64,000 bases of DNA from Branchipolynoe longqiensis (taxonomy: Eukaryota; Annelida; Polychaeta; Phyllodocida; Polynoidae): assembly GCA_030323885.1 (NCBI GenBank), contig CM059199.1, positions 77,162,781 through 77,226,780 on the forward strand, read 5' to 3'. Position numbers and translations under genes: made by a program. Every line of letters begins with the position of its first letter. Position 1 is the stretch's first letter. Below, piece after piece: positions 1,225 through 64,000 of the stretch. The notes beneath the pieces are model-generated. The model was not told the DNA's origin, ran no database searches, and saw only the letters and a program-made list of their open reading frames with translations.

Positions 1225-2314
1225 TCCCCCCTTCATACAGGCGATACGGCCGGATGCTACATGGCCCGTGTATTGTTGTTGGACTCCATACATCTAGATT
1301 TCACAATAAACATTCAACCACGTTTTACTCGCGATTCTTATATTAAACATAGTTGTTACAATTCTATGCTCACGATCAATAATTTTTTTTTCATTATTAT
1401 TTATTTAATATTTTTTTTTTTTTTTTTTATATTTTTTTATAATTTTTTTTAATTTAATTTATCCCCCTCAATTTTTTTTTATATTTTTTTTTTTACATTT
1501 TTTCATTTTTTTTATTTTATTTTGCATTATTTTTCATTCATTTTTTTTTAAAAAAATTATTTTTTTTTCATTATATTTATTTTTTTATTACTATGAAGTT
1601 TTTTGATCCTTTCTACCTTTGATTTTTTATTTTATCATTGACACACTTCTCTGTCCGAGCTCAACATTGGTACATTTAATAATCCTATCACTATTCTTAC
1701 ACATCTAACTTTTGTTCCTCCACATCTCACCCTTTCCTCCCCTTTCCCAAAGGCAGGTTTAACAAAGTGAGAAATATTATTCAATTACATTTGTGGCTTG
1801 AACTGCAAATGTTCACATAGTGCTGCATCATCTATCTTTATAACAAAGTCAATCATACGGCAAATTTGGCATCAGATGACAAATGACAATTTAACGTTTA
1901 CCATTAATCAAATCTTCACAATCTTACCTACTAACATTTTGATTCAAACTTTGTGTAACGCCACACAGTTATTCATATAACAACACAATTTTGACAATTT
2001 CATAAGTAACTCTTCAACTTGCCTTTATATCTTTAACCCATTTATGAATCCATTGATATTTCTAACTATAATGACATTCATTACCTCTGAATTTTCATGT
2101 TCAATCAGAACCGCACTATCTTTATCTACTACAATTACATTACTAACGTGTGTGTTTTCCCCACCACCATGCAAATCTGTTGCCGCAAATGGGCTCGTCA
2201 CCTGCTCTACTTCATAGGTTTAATTTAACCACTGATCTAATTGTTCGACCGAACCTCAATGTTTTGATTGGGTGTGGGTTTATGTCCATGGTAGTAGGGT
2301 GCCCGGGCACTCAG
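1225..2314 (-). mobile_element. Gypsy element E: integrase tail and 3' non-coding region
   Basis: On the minus strand, 2314-2200 encodes a basic tail (RFGRTIRSVVKLN, then stop) like the end of gypsy integrases. This continues the integrase seen at 6670-7530 across the inserted long-TIR element. The rest is AT-rich. A strong T-run block (A-rich in the element's sense) occupies about 1380-1600. No other gene is visible. Confidence 0.55.
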
Positions 2315-2586
2315 TCATTTCAAATTGATGCAAAAGTTTCGTTTTCAGTACCAATTTGAAGGTAAGGGTCTATAGAACCATTTTGGTTCGAGTGTCAAAC
2401 TCTCAGATGAAAAAAAACAAAATGGCCGCCAAAAACCAAGATGGCTGCCTATTTCAAGCTTTTTTCCGCATTACGCCTCGTAACTTTTGTACTATTGAAC
2501 CTAGAATGATGATTTTGGTCTCTATACTTAGGTTTGCATGTATGAGTAATTGAATAAAAATAAAATAAACATGATTGGAGCATATC
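2315..2586 (+). repeat. Left terminal inverted repeat
   Basis: About 272 bp. It starts TCATTTCAAATTGATGCAAA and includes AAAATGGCCGCC and GAATGATGATTTTGG. It ends near AAACATGATTGGAGCATATC. Its reverse complement is at 6400-6669, with scattered substitutions and one- to two-base indels. Confidence 0.88.
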
Positions 2587-2696
2587 TTCTCTTATATTGA
2601 GTCCTACTTCCGAGTAACTGCTTAGTCAATTGCTTGAAAAACTCCTTGAACAATACATTTAATAAGAAAATGGCTAACAAATTAACCAAATTAACC

Positions 2697-3773
2697 TATA
2701 TACATCATGTTAGTATCAGCTTCCTCATGGTTGCATTGATCCATTGGTGGACTGTTTCCAACATGGTGGACTTGATCACCTGCAGTGATGTAGACATTCT
2801 TGTCACCTGGGAAATGTTCTTCTGTTATCTTTTTTGACAGGGATGAGAACAGTTCCTTCTTGTTATCAACGTTCGCCAGAAAATTCTGCCAATTGCCTGG
2901 GATTTTGGCAGTACCAGATATGTGTTGTCAGATGCCTGTTCCTCGTTTTTCCCTTGTGCCTCCTTTGATTGTCAGTGCATGATACCGGTCCCAGACAATA
3001 TCTACTCTTGTCGATCGCTTCAAGTCGTGGTGAATTCTTGGGCAGAATACCTTGTCGAAATATGAATCAAAGGTCTTGCCTTGGACAGTTGTACCAGGAA
3101 GTGTGTGTATCAGTACTCCACCATCAATAATAATGAAGTCGTAAACATCTGGCGCTACTAGCTCCTCATCGACAGAAATGGTGCTACTTGTACAGGCTTC
3201 TGTGATATATACCAACAAATCTGACTTGGTACAAGAGTTGAGGGACCCTTCGGATGACAATGCCGGTGGGTATGGGGAAGATTCGTGATGAAAAAACTCC
3301 TCCAAATCCCCCCCACGGCTGTCTAGTACAAGAAAAGCTTGCCCATATATCTCTGCATGACGTTTGAAGTGCTGCATTTTCAGCTTAATTGCTGACTTCT
3401 TTTGTGTTTTCTTCTCATGGAACAACAGTAAGTTGTTTCGCTTGATAGGTGCTGTCAGAGGTGTGTCATTTGAGTCAAGCACACTCTGTCTGAAGTTGTT
3501 GTACTGCTCTTGTCCTATACACTCGACTTTATGGACAGATACGGCAGCAGCCGCAGACTCACACACCTTGTTGTCTAATGTAACCAGGTCTCCACTGTGC
3601 TCCTCAAAAGGATTCCCATTGCTCAGCAACACCTCCATCAGGTCTTTGGCATGGCGTAGAAATCGTTGCTGAGATGCATATCCTTCCTCATGATGAGGGA
3701 GTTCTTCATCATCATCGTTATCGTTTGCACCAGTAAACTCCTCAATGACACGGCTGATTTCCGGCCCAGTCAC
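2697..3773 (-). pseudogene. Long-TIR element protein, C-terminal part (possible PIN/FEN-like nuclease core)
   Basis: The frame opens near GPEISRVIEEF and runs through DFIIIDGGVLIH, TFDSYF, RVDIVWDRYHALTIK and TREKRGTGI to a TGA at 2928-2930. The same frame then continues with IPGNWQNFL, NKKELF and CNHEEADT before a stop at about 2697. The internal TGA is therefore a nonsense change inside a longer protein. I recognise these motifs from a large uncharacterised protein family repeated in cnidarian, mollusc and other invertebrate genomes. The order of acidic motifs (D-G, VWD, EEAD) resembles PIN/FEN-type nucleases, which is inference. The final acidic motif expected after EEADT is absent, so this copy is probably truncated as well. 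Confidence 0.6.
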
Positions 3774-4993
3774 GATCCAGCGATAATGCCACCAACTCCT
3801 TTCACCCTTTTGTTGGCTTGCTCGTGTGCTTGATCAATGGGTAAGGATGAGAAACGGTGATTGCTTCGAGTTATTGTCCAGTGTCCCTTCTCAAACTCTA
3901 CTTGGATGCTATCTGGTAGAACTTCCAGGTCTCGGATAAAGATTGGAATCCACCTGGCATAATTCTGGTGATTGTGAGCAAAGAACAGAGGCACAAGCTT
4001 CCACAGGGTAGTGACCATGAGTTCTAACTTCCGTTCCCGATGTGCCCGGATGAACATGATCTGTTGGTACTTGTGTACGAGTAGCCAGAATTTGAATGTT
4101 GGACTCTGTTCAGAAGCTATCACAACCCAATCCTCAAGAGCCATCTCGGTCCCACTGTCTTCATAGGCTCGCTTCAGAAGGCTGTTGAGTACCATAACAG
4201 TAACTTGATGGGCATATCTTGTTCTCATTACATTGGATGCTTTCAGAAAAGCTGTGGCTGCTGCTTCTGTCTTCACTAGCCCAGCTTTTTTCAGGGTTTC
4301 AGGCCATCCAGACCCACGCAGAAGATCTCCCATGGTGCTCCACAAAGCCATTTCAATGTGGAGCCCACCTAGCATAACCAGAAACTTGTCTTCCCTGAAG
4401 ATGTCAGGGAAGGTCCACTGCATTTTGTTTGCTAGGTCATAGAGTGGTTGGTCCACTACCAACACAGGGACTTGGTGTGGGTTGAAGTGCTCAGTTGTTT
4501 TTTTCACCAGTTCCATTCCATGTCGAATCATTTCTGGAGTGGCGGCTTTTTCATGGAAAAGTGGCAGGAGGGCTTCAATGTCTTTTTCTGGTTGTCCAAC
4601 AGTATCTGATCGAGCAGCATGGTATGAAGACCACATCGCTGGAGTGCGTTTTTCTGTATCAGAATCCACATATAGGGTGTCATGTACTGCAGTCATCCAT
4701 GCCTGTTTGTGCTGTTTCTCCTCATCGAATGAACTTGTTGCCACTGGTTGCACATCTTTTACCGGAGGTTGGGTGACAAGATTTCGGCCCACAGGTGGTA
4801 CAAACGTATACGAACGAGGCAGGATGGGTTCACTGCTGCATGCTCCTCTTTGCTGTGCGTTGCTTCGTAGACATTCTTGGTCCAACCCAGGCGTCTGATG
4901 AAGGAAACTGAAATATTGAAATACCAGTTCCATGGAAGGATGAGCTTGCAGTGCGTGATGTGGGATTGTGATCCAAGTTATCCAGGGCTGCAA
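3770..4993 (-). pseudogene. Long-TIR element protein, middle part
   Basis: A 407-codon frame overlapping the next by 4 bp. Its start is garbled: the DNLDHNPTS...FHGTGIS motif that belongs here lies in another frame at 4900-4995, so at least one frameshift separates it from the N-terminal part. It carries KFLVMLGGLHIEMALW, a long helical stretch, and ends PIDQAHEQANKRVKGVGGII just before the shift into GPEISR. I know of no assigned function for this middle domain. It belongs to the same decayed gene as its neighbours. Confidence 0.6.
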
Positions 4994-5029
4994 CTGTGAA
5001 AATGTGGTGATGCAAATTTGTAGGACAGA

Positions 5030-6358
5030 CTATATCAGCAAGTTCCTTGTATGATCTGCAATAGCCTGTGCAAATCTAGTTTCAATGCTGAGGACTTTCT
5101 TATATGACACACTCAGAGCATATTTGTGTAGTAGTTCTACCAGCTTCTTGCTTCTTGTTTCGGAATGCAATTTGAGGGCCAGGAACACTGCCAGTGGAGG
5201 CTCACAATTCAAGTTTGTTGAAAGAGAAGTCATATTTAGCATGGCCAACTGACTCACAGAGAGGATCTTCCTGGAATTCTCTTGTTCTGGCGATGAGTTG
5301 GGTCCTGCGAGTAGTTGACGGAAGAAATACTTTATACGTTGTGGGACAGATGATTCTTCGCAACCATTGGGAAATGAACCATCAAACTTGAATGCAGTGT
5401 CATGATCAAAAACAGATTTACGGAGAATCGATGCTGCCATTAGTAATGTATGTGCTTCCTCATCTGGTGTTTGAGTTGCATCTGATATGATCTTTCTAGC
5501 CGTCTTCGAACAAACGATGAAAACTCGGATACCTTTCTCCTCTGTCAAATTCGGGAAGTGTTCCAGGACTCTATCCTTTAGGCGTGTCCCGTTCACAGTC
5601 TTCTGGATTCCATGTTGTTCTAATCTCTCGGTCATCATATCTGTCAGATCTTGCAATGCAAAAATTCTACAACCTCCAGTGACTTCTTCCTTTATAAATT
5701 GGAGAAATTCATTTTCTGTTGCGGCCTCAAGATTTTCGCTAGCTCTGTCTTGTTTACAAATCGCATCGTAACGGCGATTGAACCCTGTGTAGCAATTCTG
5801 ATGGTACTTGGCTTCAATGGCGACCAGATCGCCTTCAGCAAGGAGTGCCACAATACGCTCTTCCCCCAGCGCGACTGCCTTATCATGTATCTGTTGGGTG
5901 AGTTTAACCTTCTGGAAAGAATGGTCTGCTTCATTTGTTTCATCACCACAGAAGATACACAGATTACGATTAACAGCTGCATTACTCCACCGGGATCTTT
6001 TTCTTACAGGAGGCAATCCTTCATTATGACTTTTTTTTGCATGGTCAAGTGCTGATGCCCTGTAAAGATGATGACAAGATTTATGCCAGGATGCATGATT
6101 CTTCTGCATGGATTCTTCATCTGGAAGTTCTATGTCTGGGTGGGGAGCAGCACCAATTGCTCTGAACTGACTTGCGAGCCTGGTGATTTCTCTGTAGGCT
6201 TCCTCTCTACGACTGGCGACTGGATTCGCAAGAGGACAAACAAGCACTTCTTCAGTTTGCTTTTGGCACAAAATACACAACTGCCATATCGTTGCCCCAG
6301 CCACCTCAGAAACAACCTGGAAAGATACAAAGAAAAAATACCCCATTTGTATCGTCAC
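5030..6358 (-). pseudogene. Long-TIR element protein, N-terminal part with paired CxxC motifs
   Basis: A 442-codon frame starting 42 bp inside the right inverted repeat. Residues about 27-34 carry CILCQKQ, followed by WHKSCHHLY near 90-100. A second module carries CIFCGDE (about 135) and YHQNCYTGFNRRY (about 190). Two Cx2C...HxxxC-like arrangements suggest zinc-binding or DNA-binding modules. The remainder is helical without recognised catalytic motifs. It ends HTRNLLI and is followed, after a frameshift, by the DNLDHNP motif. It could be the DNA-binding half of a transposase, but no known transposase signature was recognised. Confidence 0.6.
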
Positions 6359-6399
6359 ATTTTGTATTTATTGTCTCATTGGTATGAAATACCATATAA

Positions 6400-6669
6400 G
6401 ATATATTCCAATCATGTTTATTTTATTTTTATTCAATTACTCATACATGAAAACCCATATATAGACACCGAAATCATCATTCTAGGTTCCATACGACAAA
6501 AGTTATGAGGCGTAATGCAAAAAAAAACTAAATTGGCAGCCATCTTTGATTTTGGCAGCCATTTTGAATTTTTTTATCTGAGAGCTTGACACTCGAACCA
6601 AAATTGTTCTATAGACCCTTACCATCAAATTGGTACTGAAAACGAAACTTTTGCATCAATTTGAAATGA
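6400..6669 (-). repeat. Right terminal inverted repeat
   Basis: Reverse complement of the left repeat at 2315-2586. It ends GCATCAATTTGAAATGA at 6669. Downstream sequence immediately continues the interrupted gypsy integrase on the minus strand. Confidence 0.88.
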
Positions 6670-7530
6670 AAAGAGAAAAATACCCATGCATGGCCCCACT
6701 ATGGTGGGTGGGTCTGGAAGTAGGTGCTGGTGTGTTTACTATTGTGGTGTTTGTACTGTCTGTCGCCTGGGGCATTTTAATTAGATGTACTTGGTTCCTG
6801 TTTAATTGGTTGTTTGATTCGTTTTCTATTTGGTACTCGCGCACTGTCAGGCTTGTGCAACTGTTGATGACCCCCTTTTTCCACAGCCCGCGGTGATTAA
6901 TATATTTGATTTGGTTTCCTGTGTGTAGCGATTGGTGCAGCTTTCCCGATTTTTTGTCATGGTAGTATTTTTGCCTTTCTTGAATATGCAATGTTTCTTG
7001 CCGTTTCGCCTGTTGTTGTGGTTTAAGGTTCTGAGCTATGGTGGGTATGCAAGATCGCAACTGCCTGCTCATCAGCAATTGAGCTTGAGAAGCATTCAGA
7101 ACATGTATTGGAGCATTTCGGTAATTCAATAAGGCTAATTGTATGTCTTTGCCTTTGCTTCACCGTTTGGACAAACCGTTTGATCTGCCCATTGCTCCTT
7201 GGGTATTGCGGGCTTGAATACAATGGGGTAAAGCCATAGTGCTCTGCAAAATCATGGTATTCGCGGCTCGTGAATTGCAGCCCATTGTCTGATGCCACTA
7301 TTTTGGGTATCCTGTGTCTAGCAAAGTTATCTTTTAGTGAATTAATTATATTGTTAGAGGACGTATCATCTAATTTAGTTATTTCTGGATACTTTGTGTA
7401 GTAATCTACTGTAAATTAGTGTAATGGTATATGTTACGTGGTCTGTCTCAAACAAATCTACTCCGACCTTCTCGTGTGGGACACAGCAGACACTATGGTT
7501 TATCAGTGGTTCAGTGCGTGGTAGTTTTCT
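6670..7530 (-). pseudogene. Gypsy element E integrase (5' part lost)
   Basis: The minus strand reads EPLINHSVCCVPHEKVGVDLF (about 7515-7450), then decayed sequence, SDNGLQFTSREYHDFAEHYG and SPQYPRSNGQIKRFVQTVK (7295-7165), then a frameshift, YRNAPIHVLNASQAQLLMSR and a basic tail. These are the catalytic-core and C-terminal landmarks of a Ty3/gypsy integrase of the Mag/SURL type. Stops and frameshifts abound and the catalytic D/E set is incomplete. No RT or 5' LTR follows; the right edge at about 7560 meets the 20-bp minisatellite. The reading continues left of the long-TIR element. Confidence 0.75.
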
Positions 7531-8994: not shown

Positions 8995-9028
<34 letters not shown>

Positions 9029-9029
9029 C
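8995..9029. repeat. (GAT)n microsatellite
   Basis: About 11 ATG/GAT repeats directly after the LINE-like end. It probably represents that element's tail. Confidence 0.9.
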
Positions 9030-10184
9030 ATTCACTACCACACATCTGTATCTGTTACCACAAGTCTACATTCCCTGCCATGTCTACATTCACTACCACA
9101 CGTCTGTATATGTTATCCCAAGTGTACATTCACTGCCACATGTCTACATTCATTACCACACATCTACATTCACTACCACACATCTACATTCACTACCACA
9201 CATCTACATTCACTACCACACATCTACATTCACTACCACACATCTGTATATGTTATCACAAGTGTACATTCACTGCCACACGTCTACATTCACTACCACA
9301 CATCTGTATATGTTACCACAAGTCTACATTCACTGCCACCCATCTGTATCTGTTATTACAAGTCTACATTCACTGCCACACGTCTACATTCACTACCACA
9401 CATCTGTATATGTTACCACAAGTCTACATTCACTGCCACCCATCTGTATATGTTATTACAAGTCTACATTCACTGTCACACGTCTACATTCACTACCACA
9501 CATCTGTATCTGTTACCACAAGTCTACATTCACTGCCACCCATCTGTATCTGTTATTACAAGTCTACATTCACTGCCACACGTCTACATTCACTACCACA
9601 CATCTGTATATGTTACCACAAGTCTACATTCACTGCCACCCATCTGTATCTGTTATTACAAGTCTACATTCACTGCCACACGTCTACATTCACTACCACA
9701 CATCTGTATCTGTTACCACAAGTCTACATTCACTGCCACCCATCTGTATCTGTTATTACAAGTCTACATTCACTACCACACGTCTACATTCACTACCACA
9801 CATCTGTATATGTTACCACAAGTCTACATTCACTGCCACCCATCTGTATCTGTTATTACAAGTCTACATTCACTGCCACACGTCTACATTCACTACCACA
9901 CATCTGTATCTGTTACCACAAGTCTACATTCACTGCCACCCATCTGTATATGTTATTACAAGTCTACATTCACTGCCACACGTCTACATTCACTACCACA
10001 CATCTGTATCTGTTACCACAAGTCTACATTCACTGCCACCCATCTGTATCTGTTATTACAAGTCTACATTCACTGCCACATGTCTACATTCACTGCCACG
10101 TGTCTACATTCATTACCACACATCTACATTCACTACCACACATCTACATTCACTACCACACATCTACATTCACTACCACACATC
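9030..10184. repeat. 20-bp minisatellite with 100-bp higher-order repeat
   Basis: Twenty-bp units. From 9301 to about 10080 five variant units repeat as a 100-bp block about eight times. The block order is CATCTGTATATGTTACCACA, then AGTCTACATTCACTGCCACC, then three further variants. The starts at 9301, 9401, 9501 and so on differ by only a few bases. All three plus-strand frames stay open for over 1.1 kb because no unit variant contains a stop. This is not coding. Confidence 0.95.
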
Positions 10185-16240: not shown

Positions 16241-16561
16241 GTAGTGGTCTGCACTGACCTCTCAGGCAAGTAACCACATAGACAGGTAGGCGTGGGGAGT
16301 GTATTGATATCAGGGAGCCTAGGTGGTGTAATGGTTAGCACACTGGCCCGGCATGCAAAGAGATGTGGGTTCGAGTCCCGCTCTAGGCACAGTATTTCCC
16401 ATTTTCATCACCCCCATGACACTGGTTGCCGTGATCAGGATCCTGTACAAGCTTTGCGCTGTATGGTTGTTGAACCTACCCTGTGTATGTATGTGTTAGT
16501 GCATTGCCTGTATGTATGTAATTGTAAGCATTACAAGACTTACAATTCCAGGGGGACGAGT
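16241..16561 (+). mobile_element. tRNA-Gln-like SINE, unit 1 of a tandem pair
   Basis: Contains GGTGGTGTAATGGTTAGCAC (A box, as in tRNA-Gln) and GGGTTCGAGTCCCGC (B box) at about 16321-16384. A body of about 170 bp with TGTATGTATG repeats follows. The anticodon arm does not fold into a normal stem, so this is a SINE head and not a functional tRNA. Confidence 0.7.
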
Positions 16562-16742
16562 GTAGTGGTCTGCACTGACCTCTCAGGCAAGTAACCACAT
16601 AGACAGGTAGGCGTGGGGAGTGTATTGATATCAGGGAGCCTAGGTGGTGTAATGGTTAGCACACTGGCCCGGCATGCAAAGAGATGTGGGTTCGAGTCCC
16701 ACTCTAGGCACAGTATTTCCCATTTTCATCACCCCCATGACA
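16562..16742 (+). mobile_element. tRNA-Gln-like SINE, unit 2 (3' truncated)
   Basis: Repeats 16241-16421 with about one difference in 180 bp, offset by 321 bp, and breaks off after CACCCCCATGACA. The near identity points to a recent tandem duplication. Confidence 0.75.
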
Positions 16743-18748: not shown

Positions 18749-21690
18749 ACATACACTGGGCACACAGACAGACAGACACTGGGCACACAGACAGACACTG
18801 GGCACACAGACAGACACTGGGCACACAGACAGACAGACACTGGGCACACAGACAGACAGACACTGGGCACACAAACATACACTGGGCAGACAGATAGACA
18901 CTGGGCACACAGATAGACACTGGGCACACAGACAGACACTGGGCACACTGACAGACACTGGGCAGACAGACATACACTGGGAAGACAGACAGACACTGGG
19001 CAGACAGACAGACACTGGGCAGACAGGCAGACACTGGGCAGACAGACATACACTGGGAAGATAGACAGACACTGGGCACACAGACAGACACTGGGCACAC
19101 AGACAGACACTGTGCACACAGACAGACACTGGGCACACAGACAGACACTGGGCACACAGACAGACAGACACTGGGCACACAAACATACACTGGGCAGACA
19201 GATAGACACTAGGCACACAGATAGACACTGGGCACACAGACAGACACTGGGCACACTGACAGACACTGGGCAGACAGACATACACTGGGAAGACAGGCAG
19301 ACACTGGGCAGACAGACATACACTGGGAAGATAGACAGACACTGGGCACACAGACAGACACTGGGCACACAGACAGACACTGTGCACACAGACAGACACT
19401 GGGCACACAGACAGACACTGGGCACACAGACAGACATTGGGCACACAGACAGACCGACACTGGGCACACAAACATACACTGGGCAGACAGATAGACACTG
19501 GGCACACAGATAGACACTGGGCACATACAGACACTGGGCACACAGACAGACACTGGGCAGACAGACATACACTGGGAAGACAGACAGACACTGGGCAGAC
19601 ACTGGGAAGACAGACATACAGTGGGCAGACAGACATACACTGGGCAGACAGACAGACACTGGGCAGACAGACAGACACTGGGAAGACAGACAGACACTGG
19701 GCAGACACAGACACTGGGCAGACAGACAGACACCGGGCACACAGACAGACACTGGGCACACAGACAGTCACTGGGCACACAGACAGATAGACACTGGGCA
19801 CACAGACAGACACTGGGCACACAGACAGACAGTGGGCACACAGACAGACACTGGGCACACAGACAGACACTGGGCACACAGACAGACACTGGGCACACAG
19901 ACAGATAGACACTGGGCACACAGACAGACAGACACTGGGCACACAAACATACACTGGGCAGACAGATAGACACTGGGGACACAGATAGACACTGGGCACA
20001 CAGACAGACACTGGGCACACAGACAGATAGACACTGGGCACACAGATAGACACTGGGCACACAGACAGACAGACACTGGGCACACAGACTGACACTGGGC
20101 AGACAGATAGACACTGGGCAGACAGACAGACACTGGGCAGACATAAGATACAGGGCACACAGACAGACAGACACTGGGCACACAGACAGACACTGGGCAG
20201 ACAGACATACACTGGGCAGACAAATAGACACTGGACACACAGACAGACACTGGGTACACAGACAGACACTGGGCACACAGACAGACACTGGGCACACAGA
20301 CAGATAGACACTGGGCACACAGATATACACTGGGCACACAGACAGACAGACACTGGGCACACAGACTGACACTGGGCAGACAGATAGACACTGGGCAGAC
20401 AGACAGACACTGGGCAGACATAAGATACAGGGCACACAGACAGACAGACACTGGGCACACAGACAGACACTGGGCAGACAGACATACACTGGGCAGACAA
20501 ATAGACACTGGACACACAGACAGACACTGGGTACACAGACAGACACTGGGCAGACAGACAGACACTGGGCAGACAGAAGATACTGGGCAGACAGAAGACA
20601 CTTGGCAGACAGATAAACACTGGGCAGGCAGACAGACACTGGGCAGACAGACACATACTGGGCAGACAGAAGACACTGGGCAGACGAAGACACTAGGCAG
20701 ACAGCCAGACACTGGGCAGACAGACACTGGGCAGGCAGACAGACCCTGGCAAGACAGACAGACACTGGGCAGACAGACGGACACTGGGCAGACACTGGGC
20801 AGACATACAGACACTGGGCAGACAGACACTGGGCAGACAGATAGACACTGGGCAGACAGACATACACTGGGAAGACAGACAGACACTGGGCAGACACTGG
20901 GCAGACAGACAGACACTGGGCAGACAGGCAGACATACATACACTGGGAAGACAGACAGACACTGGGCAGACAGACACTGGGCAGACAGACAGACAATGGG
21001 CAGACAGACAGACACTGGGAAGACAGACATACACTGGGCAGACAGGCAGACACTGGGCAAACAGGCAGACACTGGGCAGACAGACATACACTGGGAAGAC
21101 AGACAGACACTGGGCAGACAGACATGCACTGGGCAGACAGGCAGACACTGGGAAGACAGACATACACTGGGCAGACAGACAGACACTGGGCAGACAGACA
21201 GACACTGGGCAGACAGACACTGGGCAGACAGACACTGGGCAGACAGACAGACACTGGGAAGACAGACAGGCACTGGGCAGACACTGGACAGACAGACATA
21301 CACTGGGAAGTCAGACAGACACTGGGCAGACAGACAGACACTGGGCAGACAGGCAGACACTGGGAAGACAGACATACACTGGGCAGACAGACAGACACTG
21401 GGCAGACAGACAGACACTGGGCAGACATACAGACACTGGGCAGACAGACAGACAGACACTGGGAAGACAGACAGACACTGGACAGACAGACAGACACTGG
21501 GCAAACAGTCAGACACTGGGCAGACAGTCAGACACTGGGCAGACAGACAGACACTGGGCAGACAGACACTGGGCAGACAGACACTGGGCAGACAGACAGA
21601 CACTGGGAAGACAGACAGACACTGGGCAGACAGACAGACACTGGGCAGACAGACAGACACTGGGCAGACAGACAGACACTGGGCAGACAT
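18749..21690. repeat. 19-bp minisatellite, CACACAGACAGACACTGGG, about 150 copies
   Basis: A 2.9-kb array with two subfamilies: CACACAGACAGACACTGGG dominates to about 20530 and CAGACAGACAGACACTGGG from there to 21690. Four-bp slippage variants (extra ACAG) are frequent. Minus-strand frames of up to 762 codons (SVCPVSVCL-type) exist only because the unit lacks stops in that orientation. Not coding. Confidence 0.96.
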
Positions 21691-36945: not shown

Positions 36946-39900
36946 ATGGTTTGATGATTTTGAAGAAAATTAGTGACATTGAATTATTGTCGATATAGCC
37001 TCGAAACGATGACCATGACTAACCCACGATTCTGCACCAAATAGGTGATATTGAAATATGATTTTGATATTGCACCAGAACATTGCTAAAGGTCCTAGTT
37101 GATGATTTTGAAGAAAATTAGTGACATTGAATTATTGTCGATATAGCCTCGAAACGATGACCATGACTAACCCACGATTCTGCACCAAATAGGTGATATT
37201 GAAATATGATTTTGATATTGCACCAGAACATTGCTAAAGGTCCTAGTTGATGATTTTGAAGAAAATTAGTGACATTGAATTATTGTCGATATAGCCTCGA
37301 AACGATGACCATGACTAACCCACGATTCTGCACCAAATAGGTGATATTGAAATATGATTTTGATATTGCACCAGAACATTGCTAAAAGTCCTAGTTGATG
37401 ATTTTGAAGAAAATTAGTGACATTGAATTATTGTCGATATAGCCTCGAAACGATGACCATGACTAACCCAATATGATTTTGATATTGCACCAGAACATTG
37501 CTAAAGGTCCTAGTTGATGATTTTGAAGAAAATTAGTGACATTGAATTATTGTCGATATAGCCTCGAAACGATGACCATGACTAACCCACGATTCTGCAC
37601 GAAATAGGTGATATTGAAATATGATTTTGATATTGCACCAGAACATTGCTAAAGGTCCTAGTTGATGATTTTGAAGAAAATTAGTGACATTGAATTATTG
37701 TCGATATAGCCTCGAAACGATGACCATGACTAACCCACGATTCTGCACCAAATAGGTGATATTGAAATATGATTTTGATATTGCACCAGAACATTGCTAA
37801 AGGTCCTAGTTGATGATTTTGAAGAAAATTAGTGACATTGAATTATTGTCGATATAGCCTCGAAACGATGACCATGACTAACCCACGATTCTGCACGAAA
37901 TAGGTGATATTGAAATATGATTTTGATATTGCACCAGAACATTGCTAAAGGTCCTAGTTGATGATTTTGAAGAAAATTAGTGACATTGAATTATTGTCGA
38001 TATAGCCTCGAAACGATGACCATGACTAACCCACGATTCTGCACGAAATAGGTGATATTGAAATATGATTTTGATATTGCACCAGAACATTGCTAAAGGT
38101 CCTAGTTGATGATTTTGAAGAAAATTAGTGACATTGAATTATTGTCGATATAGCCTCGAAACGATGACCATGACTAACCCACGATTCTGCACCAAATAGG
38201 TGATATTGAAATATGATTTTGATATTGCACCAGAACATTGCTAAAGGTCCTAGTTGATGATTTTGAAGAAAATTAGTGACATTGAATTATTGTCGATATA
38301 GCCTCGAAACGATGACCATGACTAACCCACGATTCTGCACCAAATAGGTGATATTGAAATATGATTTTGATATTGCACCAGAACATTGCTAAAGGTCCTA
38401 GTTGATGATTTTGAAGAAAATTAGTGACATTGAATTATTGTCGATATAGCCTCGAAACGATGACCATGACTAACCCACGATTCTGCACCAAATAGGTGAT
38501 ATTGAAATATGATTTTGATATTGCACCAGAACATTGCTAAAGGTCCTAGTTGATGATTTTGAAGAAAATTAGTGACATTGAATTATTGTCGATATAGCCT
38601 CGAAACGATGACCATGACTAACCCACGATTCTGCACCAAATAGGTGATATGGAAATATGATTTTGATATTGCACCAGAACATTGCTAAAGGTCCTAGTTG
38701 ATGATTTTGAAGAAAGTTAGTGACATTGAATTATTGTCGATATAGCCTCGAAACGATGACCATGACTAACCCACGATTCTGCACCAAATAGGTGATATTG
38801 AAATATGATTTTGATATTGCACCAGAACATTGCTAAAGGTCCTAGTTGATGATTTTGAAGAAAATTAGTGACATTGAATTATTGTCGATATAGCCTCGAA
38901 ACGATGACCATGACTAACCCACGATTCTGCACCAAATAGGTGATATTGAAATATGATTTTGATATTGCACCAGAACATTGCTAAAGGTCCTAGTTGATGA
39001 TTTTGAAGAAAATTAGTGACATTGAATTATTGTCGATATAGCCTCGAAACGATGACCATGACTAACCCACGATTCTGCACCAAATAGGTGATATTGAAAT
39101 ATGATTTTGATATTGCACCAGAACATTGCTAAAGGTCCTAGTTGATGATTTTGAAGAAAATTAGTGACATTGAATTATTGTCGATATAGCCTCGAAACGA
39201 TGACCATGACTAACCCACGATTCTGCACCAAATAGGTGATATTGAAATATGATTTTGATATTGCACCAGAACATTGCTAAAGGTCCTAGTTGATGATTTT
39301 GAAGAAAATTAGTGACATTGAATTATTGTCGATATAGCCTCGAAACGATGACCATGACTAACCCACGATTCTGCACCAAATAGGTGATATTGAAATATGA
39401 TTTTGATATTGCACCAGAACATTGCTAAAGGTCCTAGTTGATGATTTTGAAGAAAATTAGTGACATTGAATTATTGTCGATATAGCCTCGAAACAATGAC
39501 CATGACTAACCCACGATTCTGCACCAAATAGGAGATATTGAAATATGATTTTGATATTGCACCAGAACATTGCTAAAGGTCCTAGTTGATGATTTTGAAG
39601 AAAATTAGTGACATTGAATTATTGTCGATATAGCCTCGAAACGATGACCATGACTAACCCACGATTCTGCACCAAATAGGTGATATTGAAATATGATTTT
39701 GATATTGCACCAGAACATTGCTAAAGGTCCTAGTTGATGATTTTGAAGAAAATTAGTGACATTGAATTATTGTCGATATAGCCTCGAAACGATGACCATG
39801 ACTAACCCACGATTCTGCACCAAATAGGTGATATTGAAATATGATTTTGATATTGCACCAGAACATTGCTAAAGGTCCTAGTTGATGATTTTGAAGAAAA

Positions 39901-42900
39901 TTAGTGACATTGAATTATTGTCGATATAGCCTCGAAACGATGACCATGACTAACCCACGATTCTGCACCAAATAGGTGATATTGAAATATGATTTTGATA
40001 TTGCACCAGAACATTGCTAAAGGTCCTAGTTGATGATTTTGAAGAAAATTAGTGACATTGAATTATTGTCGATATAGCCTCGAAACGATGACCATGACTA
40101 ACCCACGATTCTGCACGAAATAGGTGATATTGAAATATGATTTTGATATTGCACCAGAACATTGCTAAAGGTCCTAGTTGATGATTTTGAAGAAAATTAG
40201 TGACATTGAATTATTGTCGATATAGCCTCGAAACGATGACCATGACTAACCCACGATTCTGCACGAAATAGGTGATATTGAAATATGATTTTGATATTGC
40301 ACCAGAACATTGCTAAAGGTCCTAGTTGATGATTTTGAAGAAAATTAGTGACATTGAATTAATGTCGATATAGCCTCGAAACGACGACCATGCCTAACCC
40401 ACGATTCTGCATGAAATAGGTGATATTGAAATATGATTTTGATATTGCACCAGAACATTGCTAAAGGTCCTAGTTGATGATTTTGAAGAAAATTAGTGAC
40501 ATTGAATTATTGTCGATATAGCCTCGAAACGATGACCATGACTAACCCACGATTCTGCACGAAATAGGTGATATTGAAATATGATTTTGATATTGCACCA
40601 GAACATTGCTAAAGGTCCTAGTTGATGATTTTGAAGAAAATTAGTGACATTGAATTATTGTCGATATAGCCTCGAAACGATGACCATGACTAACCCACGA
40701 TTCTGCACGAAATAGGTGATATTGAAATATGATTTTGATATTGCACCAGAACATTGCTAAAGGTCCTAGTTGATGATTTTGAAGAAAATTAGTGACATTG
40801 AATTATTGTCGATATAGCCTCGAAACGATGACCATGACTAACCCACGATTCTGCACGAAATAGGTGATATTGAAATATGATTTTGATATTGCACCAGAAC
40901 ATTGCTAAAGGTCCTAGTTGATGATTTTGAAGAAAATTAGTGACATTGAATTATTGTCGATATAGCCTCGAAACGATGACCATGACTAACCCACGATTCT
41001 GCACCAAATAGGTGATATTGAAATATGATTTTGATATTGCACCAGAACATTGCTAAAGGTCCTAGTTGATGATTTTGAAGAAAATTAGTGACATTGAATT
41101 ATTGTCGATATAGCCTCGAAACGATGACCATGACTAACCCACGATTCTGCACCAAATAGGTGATATTGAAATATGATTTTGATATTGCACCAGAACATTG
41201 CTAAAGGTCCTAGTTGATGATTTTGAAGAAAATTAGTGACATTGAATTATTGTCGATATAGCCTCGAAACGATGACCATGACTAACCCACGATTCTGCAC
41301 CAAATAGGTGATATTGAAATATGATTTTGATATTGCACCAGAACATTGCTAAAGGTCCTAGTTGATGATTTTGAAGAAAATTAGTGACATTGAATTATTG
41401 TCGATATAGCCTCGAAACGATGACCATGACTAACCCACGATTCTGCACGAAATAGGTGATATTGAAATATGATTTTGATATTGCACCAGAACATTGCTAA
41501 AGGTCCTAGTTGATGATTTTGAAGAAAATTAGTGACATTGAATTATTGTCGATATAGCCTCGAAACGATGACCATGACTAACCCACGATTCTGCACCAAA
41601 TAGGTGATATTGAAATATGATTTTGATATTGCACCAGAACATTGCTAAAGGTCCTAGTTGATGATTTTGAAGAAAATTAGTGACATTGAATTATTGTCGA
41701 TATAGCCTCGAAACGATGACCATGACTAACCCACGATTCTGCACGAAATAGGTGATATTGAAATATGATTTTGATATTGCACCAGAACATTGCTAAAGGT
41801 CCTAGTTGATGATTTTGAAGAAAATTAGTGACATTGAATTATTGTCGATATAGCCTCGAAACGATGACCATGACTAACCCACGATTCTGCACGAAATAGG
41901 TGATATTGAAATATGATTTTGATATTGCACCAGAACATTGCTAAAGGTCCTAGTTGATGATTTTGAAGAAAATTAGTGACATTGAATTATTGTCGATATA
42001 GCCTCGAAACGATGACCATGACTAACCCACGATTCTGCACCAAATAGGTGATATTGAAATATGATTTTGATATTGCACCAGAACATTGCTAAAGGTCCTA
42101 GTTGATGATTTTGAAGAAAATTAGTGACATTGAATTATTGTCGATATAGCCTCGAAACGATGACCATGACTAACCCACGATTCTGCACCAAATAGGTGAT
42201 ATTGAAATATGATTTTGATATTGCACCAGAACATTGCTAAAGGTCCTAGTTGATGATTTTGAAGAAAATTAGTGACATTGAATTATTGTCGATATAGCCT
42301 CGAAACGATGACCATGACTAACCCACGATTCTGCACCAAATAGGTGATATTGAAATATGATTTTGATATTGCACCAGAACATTGCTAAAGGTCCTAGTTG
42401 ATGATTTTGAAGAAAATTAGTGACATTGAATTATTGTCGATATAGCCTCGAAACGATGACCATGACTAACCCACGATTCTGCACCAAATAGGTGATATTG
42501 AAATATGATTTTGATATTGCACCAGAACATTGCTAAAGGTCCTAGTTGATGATTTTGAAGAAAATTAGTGACATTGAATTATTGTCGATATAGCCTCGAA
42601 ACGATGACCATGACTAACCCACGATTCTGCACCAAATAGGTGATATTGAAATATGATTTTGATATTGCACCAGAACATTGCTAAAGGTCCTAGTTGATGA
42701 TTTTGAAGAAAATTAGTGACATTGAATTATTGTCGATATAGCCTCGAAACGATGACCATGACTAACCCACGATTCTGCACGAAATAGGTGATATTGAAAT
42801 ATGATTTTGATATTGCACCAGAACATTGCTAAAGGTCCTAGTTGATGATTTTGAAGAAAATTAGTGACATTGAATTATTGTCGATATAGCCTCGAAACGA

Positions 42901-44395
42901 TGACCATGACTAACCCACGATTCTGCACCAAATAGGTGATATTGAAATATGATTTTGATATTGCACCAGAACATTGCTAAAGGTCCTAGTTGATGATTTT
43001 GAAGAAAATTAGTGACATTGAATTATTGTCGATATAGCCTCGAAACGATGACCATGACTAACCCACGATTCTGCACGAAATAGGTGATATTGAAATATGA
43101 TTTTGATATTGCACCAGAACATTGCTAAAGGTCCTAGTTGATGATTTTGAAGAAAATTAGTGACATTGAATTATTGTCGATATAGCCTCGAAACGATGAC
43201 CATGACTAACCCACGATTCTGCACCAAATAGGTGATATTGAAATATGATTTTGATATTGCACCAGAACATTGCTAAAGGTCCTAGTTGATGATTTTGAAG
43301 AAAATTAGTGACATTGAATTATTGTCGATATAGCCTCGAAACGATGACCATGACTAACCCACGATTCTGCACCAAATAGGTGATATTGAAATATGATTTT
43401 GATATTGCACCAGAACATTGCTAAAGGTCCTAGTTGATGATTTTGAAGAAAATTAGTGACATTGAATTATTGTCGATATAGCCTCGAAACGATGACCATG
43501 ACTAACCCATGATTCTGCACCAAATAGGTGATATTGAAATATGATTTTGATATTGCACCAGAACATTGCTAAAGGTCCTAGTTGATGATTTTGAAGAAAA
43601 TTAGTGACATTGAATTATTGTCGATATAGCCTCGAAACGATGACCATGACTAACCCACGATTCTGCACCAAATAGGTGATATTGAAATATGATTTTGATA
43701 TTGCACCAGAACATTGCTAAAGGTCCTAGTTGATGATTTTGAAGAAAATTAGTGACATTGAATTATTGTCGATATAGCCTCGAAACGATGACCATGACTA
43801 ACCCACGATTCTGCACGAAATAGGTGATATTGAAATATGATTTTGATATTGCACCAGAACATTGCTAAAGGTCCTAGTTGATGATTTTGAAGAAAATTAG
43901 TGACATTGAATTATTGTCGATATAGCCTCGAAACGATGACCATGACTAACCCACGATTCTGCACCAAATAGGTGATATTGAAATATGATTTTGATATTGC
44001 ACCAGAACATTGCTAAAGGTCCTAGTTGATGATTTTGAAGAAAATTAGTGACATTGAATTATTGTCGATATAGCCTCGAAACGATGACCATGACTAACCC
44101 ACGATTCTGCACCAAATAGGTGATATTGAAATATGATTTTGATATTGCACCAGAACATTGCTAAAGGTCCTAGTTGATGATTTTGAAGAAAATTAGTGAC
44201 ATTGAATTATTGTCGATATAGCCTCGAAACGATGACCATGACTAACCCACGATTCTGCACCAAATAGGTGATATTGAAATATGATTTTGATATTGCACCA
44301 GAACATTGCTAAAGGTCCTAGTTGATGATTTTGAAGAAAATTAGTGACATTGAATTATTGTCGATATAGCCTCGAAACGATGACCATGACTAACC
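36946..44395. repeat. 148-bp satellite array, about 50 copies
   Basis: Units start GATGATTTTGAAGAAAATTA and contain CCTCGAAACGATGACCATGA and AATAGGTGATATTGAAATAT. They are phased every 148 bp (37101, 37249, 37397 and so on). Copies are over 98% identical. One unit near 37440-37500 carries a deletion of about 38 bp. A recurrent two-state variant (GCACCAAAT / GCACGAAAT) marks subfamilies. Length and homogeneity fit a tandem satellite of heterochromatin. Confidence 0.98.
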
Positions 44396-52035: not shown

Positions 52036-53490
52036 CCCAACCCTCTTCCTCGAGTTTGGGTGGCCAGCCGACTACACGGCTGACGCCCTCCCGTCGACCG
52101 CCAACCACCGGGAAGATCCAGAACACTTCAAATGGATCAAGAAGTATGTCACCGACGAAGCCGCACGCGGCGCCTTGCTGGGCCCCTTCACCCACCCGCC
52201 CTTCGTCCCCTGGGCGCAGACTGGCCCGATGGTGACCCGAACGAAGAAAAACACAGATGAACGCCGTCTCATCGTCGACCATAGTTACCCCAGGGGCGTA
52301 AGCATGAACGCGGGCATCCGGAAAGACCTGTCAACTATACCCTCCCCAACATCACAAACCTCACTGAGGAGGTCACACGGCTGGGCCGGGTAGCCTACAT
52401 ATGGAGTATCAACCTCGCCCATGCCTACCGACAGCTGAGGACCTGCCCTTTGTCAGTCCTGCTCTTAGGCATCACCATCGACGGCCAGACTTACTATGAC
52501 ATCGCTCCCACCTTCGGCTGCCGGACCTCGTCGATGGCCTGTGCCTGCACCACCAATGCGGTGACATATCTGCTGTGGCGCAAAGGCCATTTCACGCTCT
52601 GCTATCTGGACAACTTCATTGGGGCGGCCAGCACAGAACAAGAGGCCGTCGTTGCCTACCTCGACGCCATCCACCTCGCCGCTGACCTTGGACTGGCCCT
52701 CTCACCACATAAGTGCATCCCGCCCACGCAGAAAACGGAGTGGCTGGGATTCGACGTTGACACGGTCGACATGACGGTCCGGATCCCGACGGCCAAGCTC
52801 GACGATGTCGTCGCCGAGTGCGCCAAATGGGTACCGGGTAGCAGAGCATCCAGGAAGGGCCTCCAGCGCCTCGTTGGTCGCCTCCAACACATGGCCAAGT
52901 GCGTACGACCAGCCAGGCGGTTTATGAATCGAATAGTGGCGGCCCTGAGGAGCGCCCCCTACACCGGCAAGCATGCCGTAACCCAAGAACGGGATCGTCC
53001 TCCTGCACCCACCCCCGAAGCACGACTGGATAATAGAGTGTGACTCTTCACTCCTCGCAGGCAGGGCACACTCGCCAGCCGGGTACATCACTGAAGATTA
53101 CCAGCCGGGGTACCTCGCGGACGGTCACAACATTGCCCAGCTCGAGGCCTCGTTGTGGCCCTACATGCACTTACACCACCCAACCCTCAAGATTACGCCA
53201 TTGTCGTCAATACCGATAACCAAGCCTCCCAGGTCGTCCTCGAATCCGGTGCTGGAAGGGACCCCACCCTATGCGGATGCGCCCGGGCGATCTGGAGGTT
53301 CACGGCTCTCAACTCCTGTGAGGTCTGGGTCGTCCACAAGCCTGGAGCCGAGATCGCCTTCGCCGACGCCCTCAGCAGAGCCCCTTTCGATCAGGCCTCT
53401 CGGCGAAGGGTGGATCGGTTTGTGGACGACATGGACCTCGTCCGCACACGTGTCCATCACGACTCCTCAATTGTCACCGACATTGACTAG
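52036..53490 (+). pseudogene. F2 DIRS reverse transcriptase-RNase H
   Basis: Reads FLEFGWPADYTADAL, RLIVDHSYPRGVSMNAGI, a frameshift near 52325, WSINLAHAYRQLRTCPLS, YDIAPTFGCRTSS and YLDNFIGA (52602-52625). YLDN replaces the usual YxDD active site. Next come LGFDVDTVDMTVRIP and LQRLVGRLQHMAKC. RNase H follows: IIECDSSLLAGRA, VVNTDNQASQVVLES and VHKPGAEIAFADALSRA. The RT-RH order and motif wording match DIRS, not gypsy. Frameshifts (about 52325, 53020, 53150) and the altered active site argue against function. Confidence 0.8.
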
Positions 53491-53539
53491 CCTGGGTAGA
53501 GATACTAATTTGCCTCTCTCCCCCCAGGCACACAACAAG

Positions 53540-54528
53540 ACCCCACGATGTAGTCCACCTCTTCCGTGCCGGCCTCGCCCGTGGAACATGGCGGAACAAA
53601 CATCTACAGCTCAAGGTCTACCATGTGCACGCCCGGACACAAGACTATGACCCCTTGTCCCCGACCCAGCTCGACATAGCATCCTATCTCCCGCACCTCT
53701 CTGCTTCCCTCACTTTGCCCGGGGCCGTAATGAATTACCTCAGCGCAGCTCGGACCTGGGTGAGGCTGTGGGATGGCAGGACATGCAGCTTCGATTCCTA
53801 CCTCATCTCCGTAATCAAGCGCGGGGTCGTCCGGACTTCGACCCACCTCCCGTGCCAGGTCCCACCGCTCACCACCCACCACCTCCTCCACGTCATCCGG
53901 TACTTCCACCGGGCCGGTGCCCATGCCAAGGTCCTAACATCCGCCCTCCTCATCGGCTACTTCTCACTACTTCGACAGGGGAACCTACTGGTAACCGGGC
54001 GATCTGACGACCCCGGCCACACCCTGAGACATGCCGACGTCCTGGACGATACCACCCACCTTACCATCAAGGTCCGGTCCACCAAGACCTCCAGGTCCAT
54101 CGCCGACACCTTCACCATCAGGATCCCCAGGATCCCCACCTCCGAGTGCTGCCCCGTACACGCCTTACGTTACATGCTCACCACCCGATCTCTTCCCCTC
54201 GAACCGGCCTTCTTGACCCCGGATGGCACACCGCTCACCATGCGGACACTCAACATCACGCTTCGTGCTGCGCTCCAACACACGTGGGTGCCCAGACCCC
54301 CACACCTACACTCTTCACAGCCTTCGACGAGGGGCCGCCCAGGCCTGCACTGCAGCACGCGCACCCCTCCAAGACATCAGCGACCTCGGCCACTGGCGGT
54401 CCTCAGCCATCCACAGCTATGTCCTGGCCCACGCCTTTACCGTCACCAACATACTCTATTCATTTGACTTCCTCCCCACTTACCTACCGAACATTACTTA
54501 CTCATTATACTCATCACTTAATGATTAG
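53540..54528 (+). pseudogene. F2 tyrosine recombinase
   Basis: Phage-integrase-type recombinase that replaces the DDE integrase in DIRS elements. Core-binding half PTQLDIASYLPHLSASLT. Catalytic half YFSLLRQGNLL (Arg I) and KVRSTKTSR (Lys). After a frameshift near 54290 come LHSLRRGAAQ (HxxR), GHWRS and HSYV (nucleophile Tyr). All catalytic positions are readable but in two frames. Confidence 0.8.
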
Positions 54529-61519: not shown

Positions 61520-62407
61520 TCATGGGGGGAGGGACCCCGAAGAGCCCTCCACCAAAACGGAGGAGAGGGCTCGAGGGGCACCCGAGGCGGCGATCCGAGG
61601 GACGTAGCCATGCACGGCATCGGAGGTCCAGGTGCCCTGGGCCATTATGTCCTCCAGGGGCACCCCGGCACGGTGGCAAGCCTGGGTGGCTCCGCAGCGA
61701 AGGCTGTGCAGGGTGTAGCCATCCGGGGAGGGCACCCCGAGGGCCCGGAGGGCACCGCGGAGTATGGATGTCAGGCTCCGCGGGTCGAGAGGGCGGCCCA
61801 AGGGCAGGATTAAGGCCGGGTCAGCATCGAGGGCTGGCACAAGGGTGGTGGAGGCGGCCCAGGCCGCCACGGGGCAGAGTGGGTGCCCGGCCGAGGCTGG
61901 GATGAAGAGGGCCACCGCCCCCGAGGGAAGTCTGATGGTCTTCGAGCTCCGGGGTGTAACTCGGTGCCCCGCAGGGGCGGGGGCGACGTCGGCTCGGGTA
62001 ATGGTGTGTGGCCCGCCCCACGCCTCGGGGCAAGGGGAGAGGAGGCTGGACTGCCTCAGCATCCCGTAGTACCCGAGGAGCAGGGTGGCGCGAGGGACGA
62101 CGCCCGAGGGCCCGGCAAGGGCGAGGTGCACGGCAACAGCGGCGAGGCAGGCAGGCATGAGAGGGGGTGCCGGGCGGGGGACATGGCCGGAGGCCCGCTC
62201 GCCCCCTCGGCAGACGTCTCGGGCGAGGCGCGAGGCGAAGGCCGAGGAGTCACCCCCGGCCACCTCGAGCCAGGAGCGCGCCCCGGAGATGGAGTTCCGA
62301 ATGGAGGCCGGGGCGACGCGGCGGGCATAGAGCGAGGCGGTGTAGGCGGCCACGTCAAAGGGGGTGGGAGCCAGAGGGTCCCAGTGGTGGCCCGAGGCGA
62401 ACTCCAT
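61520..62407 (-). CDS. DIRS element G tyrosine recombinase
   Basis: An intact 295-codon frame (ATG at 62407), possibly extending upstream as LAPSTWR in an adjacent frame. Core-binding domain PTPFDVAAYTASLYARRV. Catalytic domain: MLRQSSLL (Arg I, about 62050), TPRSSKTIRL (Lys), LHSLRCGATQ (HxxR, about 61700), GTWTSD and HGYV (Tyr). The Trp replaces the second catalytic His, as is common. It lies 105 bp downstream of the RT frame in the same orientation, with the order seen in F2. GC-rich and free of stops, unlike other elements here. Confidence 0.85.
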   Translation of the reverse strand: MEFASGHHWDPLAPTPFDVAAYTASLYARRVAPASIRNSISGARSWLEVAGGDSSAFASRLARDVCRGGERASGHVPRPAPPLMPACLAAVAVHLALAGPSGVVPRATLLLGYYGMLRQSSLLSPCPEAWGGPHTITRADVAPAPAGHRVTPRSSKTIRLPSGAVALFIPASAGHPLCPVAAWAASTTLVPALDADPALILPLGRPLDPRSLTSILRGALRALGVPSPDGYTLHSLRCGATQACHRAGVPLEDIMAQGTWTSDAVHGYVPRIAASGAPRALSSVLVEGSSGSLPP

Positions 62408-62512
62408 GTACCCTCGGGCCCGGTGGCGGCGGTTCCCTCCAGGTGGATGGGGCGAGGGAGGCGAGGTGGAGTCCGTCCACGGCGGCGATCTCCGTGTTGG
62501 TGTAGCCTGTAG

Positions 62513-63838: not shown

Positions 63839-64000
63839 CGGGGAGACCTGTGTCCAGGGGGTGAACGGGGGGGGCTAGGAAAGGGCCAGCGAGGGTGCCG
63901 TGGGCGAGCTCTGTGGATATGAAGTCCCGGAGGTGGACTAGGGAAGCCAAACTCCACGAGGTCCTTATCGTGGTAGTCCCGGAGGCGGCTTCTCCAGGCG
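63839..64000 (-). mobile_element. DIRS element G, upstream RT region (edge)
   Basis: GC-rich continuation of element G on the minus strand with frames broken around 63840-63900 (a run of G at about 63867). Gag and the 5' terminus lie outside the window. Confidence 0.5.

What the first reader, a model, noticed from the sequence alone, without database searches (positions are those of the whole stretch)
2315..6669. Long-TIR mobile element carrying an uncharacterised protein family with a possible PIN/FEN-like nuclease core
Seen: roughly 270-bp inverted repeats exactly bracket one minus-strand gene in three broken frames. Its order is two CxxC/H modules, DNLDHNPTS-FHGTGIS, PIDQAHEQ-GPEISR, DGG...TF..YF...VWDRY...TREKRG, IPGNWQNFL, HEEADT. 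Known: proteins with these phrases are abundant and unannotated in many invertebrate genomes. Inference: the TIR bracketing shows this family travels as a DNA transposon, and the spaced acidic residues suggest a PIN/FEN-like nuclease rather than a classical DDE transposase. No recognised transposase is present.
Basis: partly seen in the sequence, partly recalled or inferred. Interest (0 to 1): 0.85.

Follow-up and report, generated by a model that had tools for sequence, protein, structure and literature searches.

The report
Academ-like transposon, internally deleted copy
This is one of several dozen copies of a cut-and-paste jumping gene in this animal's genome, most likely of the known Academ group; its protein appears to join a classic transposase core to a second, flap-cutting type of nuclease, and this copy has lost part of that second enzyme.

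Summary
All 21 own-genome copies examined (window plus 20 fetched) carry both inverted repeats. The repeats are subterminal: the element is window 2292-6701, 5'-TAGTAGGG...CCCCACTA-3', flanked by the duplicated target TGG. A 3-bp duplication is perfect in 20 of 20 testable copies, and in 4 of 4 fetched from a second family at about 37% protein identity. Five of five fetched empty sites, in a Gypsy-like repeat, show the uninterrupted target. Uninterrupted relatives are about 1,470 aa: two zinc-like modules, a core with D444-D621-E833 nearly invariant in a DDE-like arrangement, a domain with the ordered acidic signature of FEN/XPG nucleases, then eight cysteines. The window copy lost the distal part of the nuclease and the cysteine tail through a 799-bp deletion shared by 17 of 21 copies, so a derivative was amplified, presumably in trans. 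Length, one-gene layout and 3-bp duplication match published Academ (AcademX). Comparison with Academ sequences and structure prediction were not possible. Probable new member of a known kind.

The parts
2292..6701 (.). Whole element, 4410 bp, 5'-TAGTAGGGTGCC...CATGGCCCCACTA-3' (most other copies begin TAGTGGGG)
   Evidence: Limits shared by the copies, ends and TSD, five empty sites without it
2289..2291 (+). Target-site duplication, left copy (TGG)
   Evidence: single TGG in 5 of 5 fetched empty sites
6702..6704 (+). Target-site duplication, right copy (TGG)
2292..2314 (+). Outer left end, beyond the long inverted repeat
   Evidence: Shared with small differences by 18 of 20 fetched copies; L066 altered, L068 mostly N
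6670..6701 (+). Outer right end, beyond the long inverted repeat
   Evidence: Shared by 20 of 20 fetched copies, with a variable run of C before CACTA
2315..2598 (+). Long inverted repeat, left arm
   Evidence: 89% identical to the right arm; present in all 20 fetched copies
6388..6669 (-). Long inverted repeat, right arm
2703..6304 (-). Broken transposase gene, about residues 1-1211 of 1471 (P0065 numbering)
   Evidence: tblastn 83-86% identity; frames
5792..6280 (-). Two putative zinc modules: LCILC (6266-6280), WHKSC (6074-6088), LCIFC (5948-5962), YHQNC (5792-5806)
   Evidence: Coordinates; C10, C13, H74, C77, C116, C119, H168, C171 near-invariant
4962..4982 (-). DNLDHNP: candidate first catalytic Asp (D444) of the DDE-like core
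   Evidence: D444 55 of 55 rows; coordinates
4439..4459 (-). VVDQPLY: candidate second catalytic Asp (D621)
   Evidence: 55 of 56 rows; coordinates
4349..4369 (-). GGLHIEM: GxxH step after D621 (H652)
   Evidence: H652 56 of 57 rows; coordinates
3818..3838 (-). IDQAHEQ: candidate catalytic Glu (E833), inside the DUF6589 match
   Evidence: E833 59 of 60 rows; PF20231 at E up to 10 in 16 of 25 members, mostly below its cut-off in those shown
3117..3131 (-). IIDGG: first acid of the FEN-like domain (D1074)
   Evidence: 62 of 62 rows; coordinates
2940..3008 (-). RVDIVWD...TREKRG: second FEN-like acid (D1119) and basic stretch
   Evidence: D1119 60 of 60 rows; coordinates
2712..2729 (-). HEEADT: third FEN-like acidic group (E1207, E1208, D1210); the shared 799-bp deletion begins at these codons, removing D1233, D1235, D1296 and the eight-cysteine tail

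Best explanation
The feature is a broken, internally deleted copy of a cut-and-paste DNA transposon, most probably of the Academ superfamily (nuclease-bearing AcademX lineage). The full-length element (about 5.2 kb here) encodes one protein of about 1,470 residues. Likely working: the N-terminal zinc-like modules and the C-terminal eight-cysteine tail bind DNA, perhaps the long subterminal repeats (inferred). An RNase H-like core with D444, D621 and E833 cuts and joins the ends (inferred from conservation and order). A FEN/XPG-like nuclease at residues about 1070-1310 trims a branched or flapped intermediate at the ends or the target (inferred). Insertion duplicates 3 bp of target (shown). The window copy descends from a derivative that lost 799 bp; that derivative spread presumably with protein from full-length copies (inferred from the shared deletion), and this copy landed in a Gypsy-like repeat (insertion shown) and is now broken in several frames.
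For: Mobility: both repeats in 20 of 20 fetched copies plus the window; 3-bp TSD in 19 of 19 copies by script and one more by eye, one copy unreadable; second family 4 of 4 fetched, by eye; 5 of 5 fetched empty sites. Protein: ten uninterrupted relatives of 1457-1496 aa at 64-86% identity. Catalytic acids: counts; a random-placement test of the FEN pattern gave 5 of 400,000 (ranges and region chosen after seeing the data). Derivative: the same 799-bp deletion in 17 of 21 and the same 8-bp insertion in 10 of 21; substitutions against L067 spread over all three codon positions in the seven copies tested, as in neutral decay. Academ fit: 3-bp TSD (PMC5199201, passage); AcademX 3 or 4 bp and nuclease (PMC10045372, passage); DDD/E superfamily (PMC9587614 and PMC10294476, passages); mean length 5565 bp in bivalves.
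Against: No Academ reference sequence was available, so membership rests on shared features only; Kojima 2020 was not held. No Pfam or NCBIfam transposase or XPG model matched. Profile comparison with archaeal FEN1 was weak: score 23.3, equalled or beaten by 1 of 150 and 4 of 200 column shuffles, and the column-reversed control scored 37.1 against one FEN alignment (19.6 against the other). The fold was not predicted. The GxxH step differs from the C/DxxH published for five other superfamilies.
Confidence: 0.8

Rival explanations
1. The FEN-like nuclease is the only catalyst; the upstream core is a binding scaffold.
For: FEN-like acids are near-invariant and in order; no DDE profile matches.
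Against: D444, D621 and E833 are as conserved as the FEN-like acids and sit after hydrophobic stretches and in a helix-like motif as in DDE cores (inference). Academ is published as DDD/E. FEN enzymes are not known to join strands (general knowledge).
Confidence: 0.1
2. It is a CACTA/EnSpm element: 3-bp TSD and a CACTA/TAGTG pentamer at the ends.
For: 3-bp TSD; right ends read CACTA in both families and left ends TAGTG in most copies.
Against: The motif faces the other way: 5'-TAGTG...CACTA-3', where CACTA elements read 5'-CACTA...TAGTG-3' (recalled). The window reads TAGTA and two copies of the second family TAGTC on the left. No Pfam transposase model matched the protein.
Confidence: 0.04
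3. A new superfamily, outside Academ, that independently joined a DDE-like core to a FEN-like nuclease.
For: No direct match to an Academ sequence was or could be shown; only DUF6589 is annotated in Pfam.
Against: TSD length, nuclease, single gene and length match what is published for Academ.
Confidence: 0.1
4. A host gene, or a passenger of the neighbouring Gypsy-like retrotransposon, rather than a transposon.
For: Gypsy integrase-like frames lie next to it (7023-7415).
Against: Some 73 dispersed places by my count; the 20 fetched have the element's own ends, with unrelated flanks and varied TSDs; the Gypsy-like repeat exists without it elsewhere.
Confidence: 0.01

Closest known systems
Academ superfamily, AcademX lineage (Kapitonov and Jurka 2010; Kojima 2020, neither read)
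   Same: Inverted repeats, 3-bp TSD, about 5 kb, one large protein, nuclease plus DDD/E (per PMC10045372, PMC5199201, PMC9587614, PMC10294476, passages read). That the X stands for XPG and that Academ has a Cys8 motif is recalled.
   Different: Long repeats set 23 and 32 bp in from the true ends; terminal TAGT...CACTA. Whether other Academ share this is unknown to me.
FEN1/XPG structure-specific nucleases
   Same: Order of acids: spacing 45/89/2/23/2/61 here against 53/72/2/19/2/61 in P. furiosus FEN1 (active-site numbers recalled).
   Different: Part of a transposase; no Pfam XPG match; longer gap between the second and third acidic groups.
CACTA/EnSpm
   Same: 3-bp TSD and the pentamer TAGTG/CACTA at most ends.
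   Different: Pentamer in the opposite orientation (recalled); no CACTA transposase model matched in Pfam.

Membership tests
Academ (AcademX) | 3 (or 4) bp TSD | tested here: met
   3 bp in 20 of 20 testable copies and 4 of 4 fetched of a second family; never 4 in the 19 scripted; published value
Academ (AcademX) | Terminal inverted repeats | tested here: met
   the long repeats are subterminal, the outermost match is short (TAGTGGGG/CCCCACTA)
Academ (AcademX) | Encodes a nuclease besides the transposase | tested here: inconclusive
   Acidic signature fits; profile test weak, one control higher
Academ (AcademX) | DDD/E catalytic core | tested here: inconclusive
   D444, D621, E833 near-invariant; no fold, no profile match
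Academ (AcademX) | Sequence similarity to Repbase Academ transposases | not testable with these tools
   No Repbase; Kojima 2020 and Yuan and Wessler 2011 not held
FEN/XPG nuclease | Seven catalytic acids in order | tested here: met
   50 to 62 rows per position, at most 2 exceptions each; the last three are absent from the window copy
FEN/XPG nuclease | Profile similarity to FEN1 | tested here: inconclusive
   Score 23.3; 1 of 150 and 4 of 200 shuffles as high; reversed control 37.1
FEN/XPG nuclease | PIN-like fold | not testable with these tools
   Structure prediction switched off
CACTA/EnSpm | 5'-CACTA...TAGTG-3' ends (recalled) | tested here: not met
   Ends read 5'-TAGT...CACTA-3'
CACTA/EnSpm | 3-bp TSD (recalled) | tested here: met
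Kolobok | TTAA TSD (recalled) | tested here: not met
   3-bp TSDs of varied sequence
hAT / MULE | 8-11 bp TSD (recalled) | tested here: not met
AcademH | 9-10 bp TSD and helicase | tested here: not met
   3-bp TSD; no helicase model matched; published value

The most novel reading that the evidence does not exclude
One polypeptide carries two unrelated metal-dependent nucleases, a DDE transposase and a FEN-type flap nuclease, that act in sequence, and the FEN step sets the 3-bp stagger. This would make the AcademX/AcademH pair (3-4 against 9-10 bp) a natural swap experiment, with elements that lost the FEN half persisting only by borrowing it in trans.
Probability: 0.3. Interest if true: 0.7.

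Novelty: new member of a known kind. Interest (0 to 1): 0.45.

Why it matters
It ties a widespread unannotated animal protein family (named relatives here in fish, hagfish, a sea cucumber, an annelid, a sea anemone, a thrips and a sea spider) to a transposon with exact ends, target duplication and empty sites. It names D444, D621, E833 and the FEN-like acids as test points, so how a DDE-like and a FEN-like enzyme could share one reaction becomes testable. It also suggests that gene models with these phrases in animal genomes are often transposons, which helps annotation.

Tried and rejected
Profile comparison with archaeal FEN1: suggestive alignment at D1296 but not significant once controls are counted. 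PDB sequence searches: nothing for the window piece and only three matches at E 0.28-2.3, judged chance, for alignment A2. Related loci in viral and prokaryote contigs by conserved peptide patterns: none confirmed; the 26-mer of the repeat in viral contigs: none. MULE reference for the DDE core: one match in the genome, too few to use; a hAT search did not complete. Papers linking XPG with Academ: none found in the held library (five listings unrelated by title, none, two unrelated by title). The ~1190-aa shorter relatives (such as P0086) were considered as natural nuclease-less forms; they may end at an intron, so they were not used as evidence (inference).
Full report
What was checked. The finding describes inverted repeats bracketing one broken minus-strand gene at 2315-6669. 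Both are there. The arms align over 284 columns with 253 identities; the score is 438 against a maximum of 44 in 294 random pairs of the same size from the window. The outer 26 bases occur nowhere else in the window within 3 mismatches. The gene maps to residues 1-1214 of a relative without stops, P0065 (1471 aa), at 83-86% identity in two blocks, with frame changes near 5030, 4900 and 3780 and an in-frame stop at about 2928. Pfam shows only weak matches, among them DUF6589.

True ends. The window's own assembly (1.85 Gb) could be searched. A 301-aa piece of the gene matched 133 stretches; by my reading of the table 106 are 67-100% identical, in about 73 separate places since many elements give two rows, and 27 are 32-37% (131 of 928 candidates scored, so lower bounds). 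I fetched the 20 best after the window. All 20 have both inverted repeats. In 18 of the 20 the left side continues with the same sequence, 21-23 bp, to the end TAGT; L066 has an altered left end and L068 reads mostly N there. In all 20 the right side continues to CACTA, 32 bp in the window and a few more elsewhere because of a variable run of C. The element is therefore 2292-6701 in the window, which begins TAGTAGGG where most copies begin TAGTGGGG.

Target duplication and empty site. With these ends a script found a perfect 3-bp duplication in 19 of 19 copies whose ends it recognised, window included; none extends to 4 bp. L066 reads AAT on both sides by eye, making 20 of 20; L068 cannot be judged. 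The duplications vary and the flanks are unrelated, so the copies are separate insertions. The window's two flanks, joined with one TGG, matched 41 stretches of the genome (40 of 72 candidates scored); by my reading two are the window's own flanks and the rest are 38 places that run across the join. Five were fetched and all five read GTCCATGG-TGGGTGGG without interruption. The neighbouring frames resemble a Gypsy integrase, so the host repeat is probably a Gypsy retrotransposon.

A second family. All four have inverted repeats of about 230-280 bp. Right ends read CTAAGCTGCCTCACTA; left ends read TAGTGAGG in two and TAGTCAGG in two. The 3-bp duplications, by eye, are TTA, TCA, TTA, TTA. So TAGT...CACTA ends and a 3-bp duplication hold across two families sharing about 37% of their protein sequence.

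The protein. Searches returned 64, 43 and 83 proteins (overlapping sets). Ten of the 43 are 1457-1496 aa and 64-86% identical to the window's protein. Named sources include two cod relatives, a hake, an eel, a hagfish, a sea cucumber, an annelid, Nematostella, Frankliniella and Nymphon. In alignment A2 (64 rows chosen from 172 proteins) these are near-invariant, counted over rows with a residue: C10, C13, H74, C77 and C116, C119, H168, C171 (two zinc-like modules); D444 55/55, D447 55/55, D621 55/56, H652 56/57, D829 60/60, E833 59/60; D1074 62/62, D1115 59/60, D1119 60/60, E1207 52/54, E1208 53/54, D1210 54/54, D1233 52/53, D1235 52/54, D1296 50/50; and eight cysteines from C1443 to C1469. 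One distant member has a sub-threshold tesmin/TSO1 CXC match there.

Is there a DDE core? D444 follows a hydrophobic stretch (FTVAAL), D621 follows another (PVLVV), then comes KFVVMLGGLH, and E833 lies in a helix-like IDQAHEQ stretch some 200 residues on. This is the order of an RNase H-like transposase with a large insertion; it is an inference from sequence. DUF6589 (16 of 25 members at E up to 10, best 1.6e-6; above its cut-off in P0121) covers the E833 end. No transposase profile matched. Academ is listed among DDD/E superfamilies (PMC9587614, passage) and treated as DDE/D in bivalves (PMC10294476, passages).

Is there a FEN-like nuclease? The nine near-invariant acids between 1030 and 1340 fall in, or next to, the FEN order (E1022, also near-invariant, lies just outside), with spacing 45/89/2/23/2/61 against 53/72/2/19/2/61 in P. 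furiosus FEN1 (catalytic numbering recalled). Nine randomly placed acids met the pattern in 5 of 400,000 trials, with ranges and region I chose after seeing the data. Profile comparison with 49 of the 53 archaeal FEN1 loci placed D1296 on the FEN aspartate of VGTDY-GIKGIG in the local runs that covered it, but the score (23.3) was reached by 1 of 150 and 4 of 200 column shuffles; other parts of the protein scored 18.9 and 18.5; and the reversed control scored 37.1 against one FEN alignment and 19.6 against the other. A run of residues 1060-1150 alone, and a global run, gave nothing. I regard the motif evidence as good and the profile evidence as inconclusive.

The deletion derivative. Seventeen of 21 copies, window included, share one 799-bp deletion that starts at the HEEADT codons; the exceptions are L067, L071, L072 and L077, of which L071 and L077 have other large deletions. 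There is almost no microhomology at the joint (1 base). Ten of 21 also share an 8-bp insertion near residue 825 that breaks the frame. The 20 were picked by likeness to the window, itself deleted, so 17 of 21 may overstate the share. Genome-wide the missing C-terminal part gives 25 stretches at 87-100% (23 places by my count) and 123 at 29-41% (148 of 1689 candidates scored). L067 reads through to the end of the cysteine tail with two internal stops. Substitutions against L067 are spread over all three codon positions in the seven copies tested (window 2.2, 2.0, 2.4%). So a derivative that could not make the full protein was multiplied, presumably by protein from full-length copies.

Known or new. 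Published Academ features seen in passages: 3-bp TSD (PMC5199201); AcademX 3 or 4 bp with nuclease, AcademH 9 or 10 bp with helicase (PMC10045372); mean length 5565 bp in bivalves and a few frames in two annelids (PMC10294476). The two longest copies here are 5233 and 5266 bp. The founding papers were not held, so direct sequence membership is untested. I file it as a probable new member of AcademX.

Noticed in passing
window 7023-7415 (-) and flanks of 2292-6701: Gypsy-like integrase frames; the flanking sequence is a dispersed repeat with some 38 other places in the genome (capped list).
   Followed up: partly
window 52285-54467 (+) and 61520-63874 (-): Frames resembling a reverse transcriptase with a tyrosine recombinase, as in DIRS-like retrotransposons (by eye).
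   Followed up: no
window 37470-44395: A 148-bp satellite array, about 47 copies at 99% matches; further arrays of 16-100 bp units, such as 9028-10181 and 18765-21689.
   Followed up: no
window 16317-16389 and 16638-16710: Two tRNA matches on the plus strand.
   Followed up: no
own genome: 123 stretches at 29-41% identity to the nuclease half, two of them in open frames above 1000 codons, so other families of this kind are present.
   Followed up: partly
window 6300-6354 (-): A splice-acceptor-like stretch precedes the first conserved residues, hinting at a short upstream exon (by eye).
   Followed up: no
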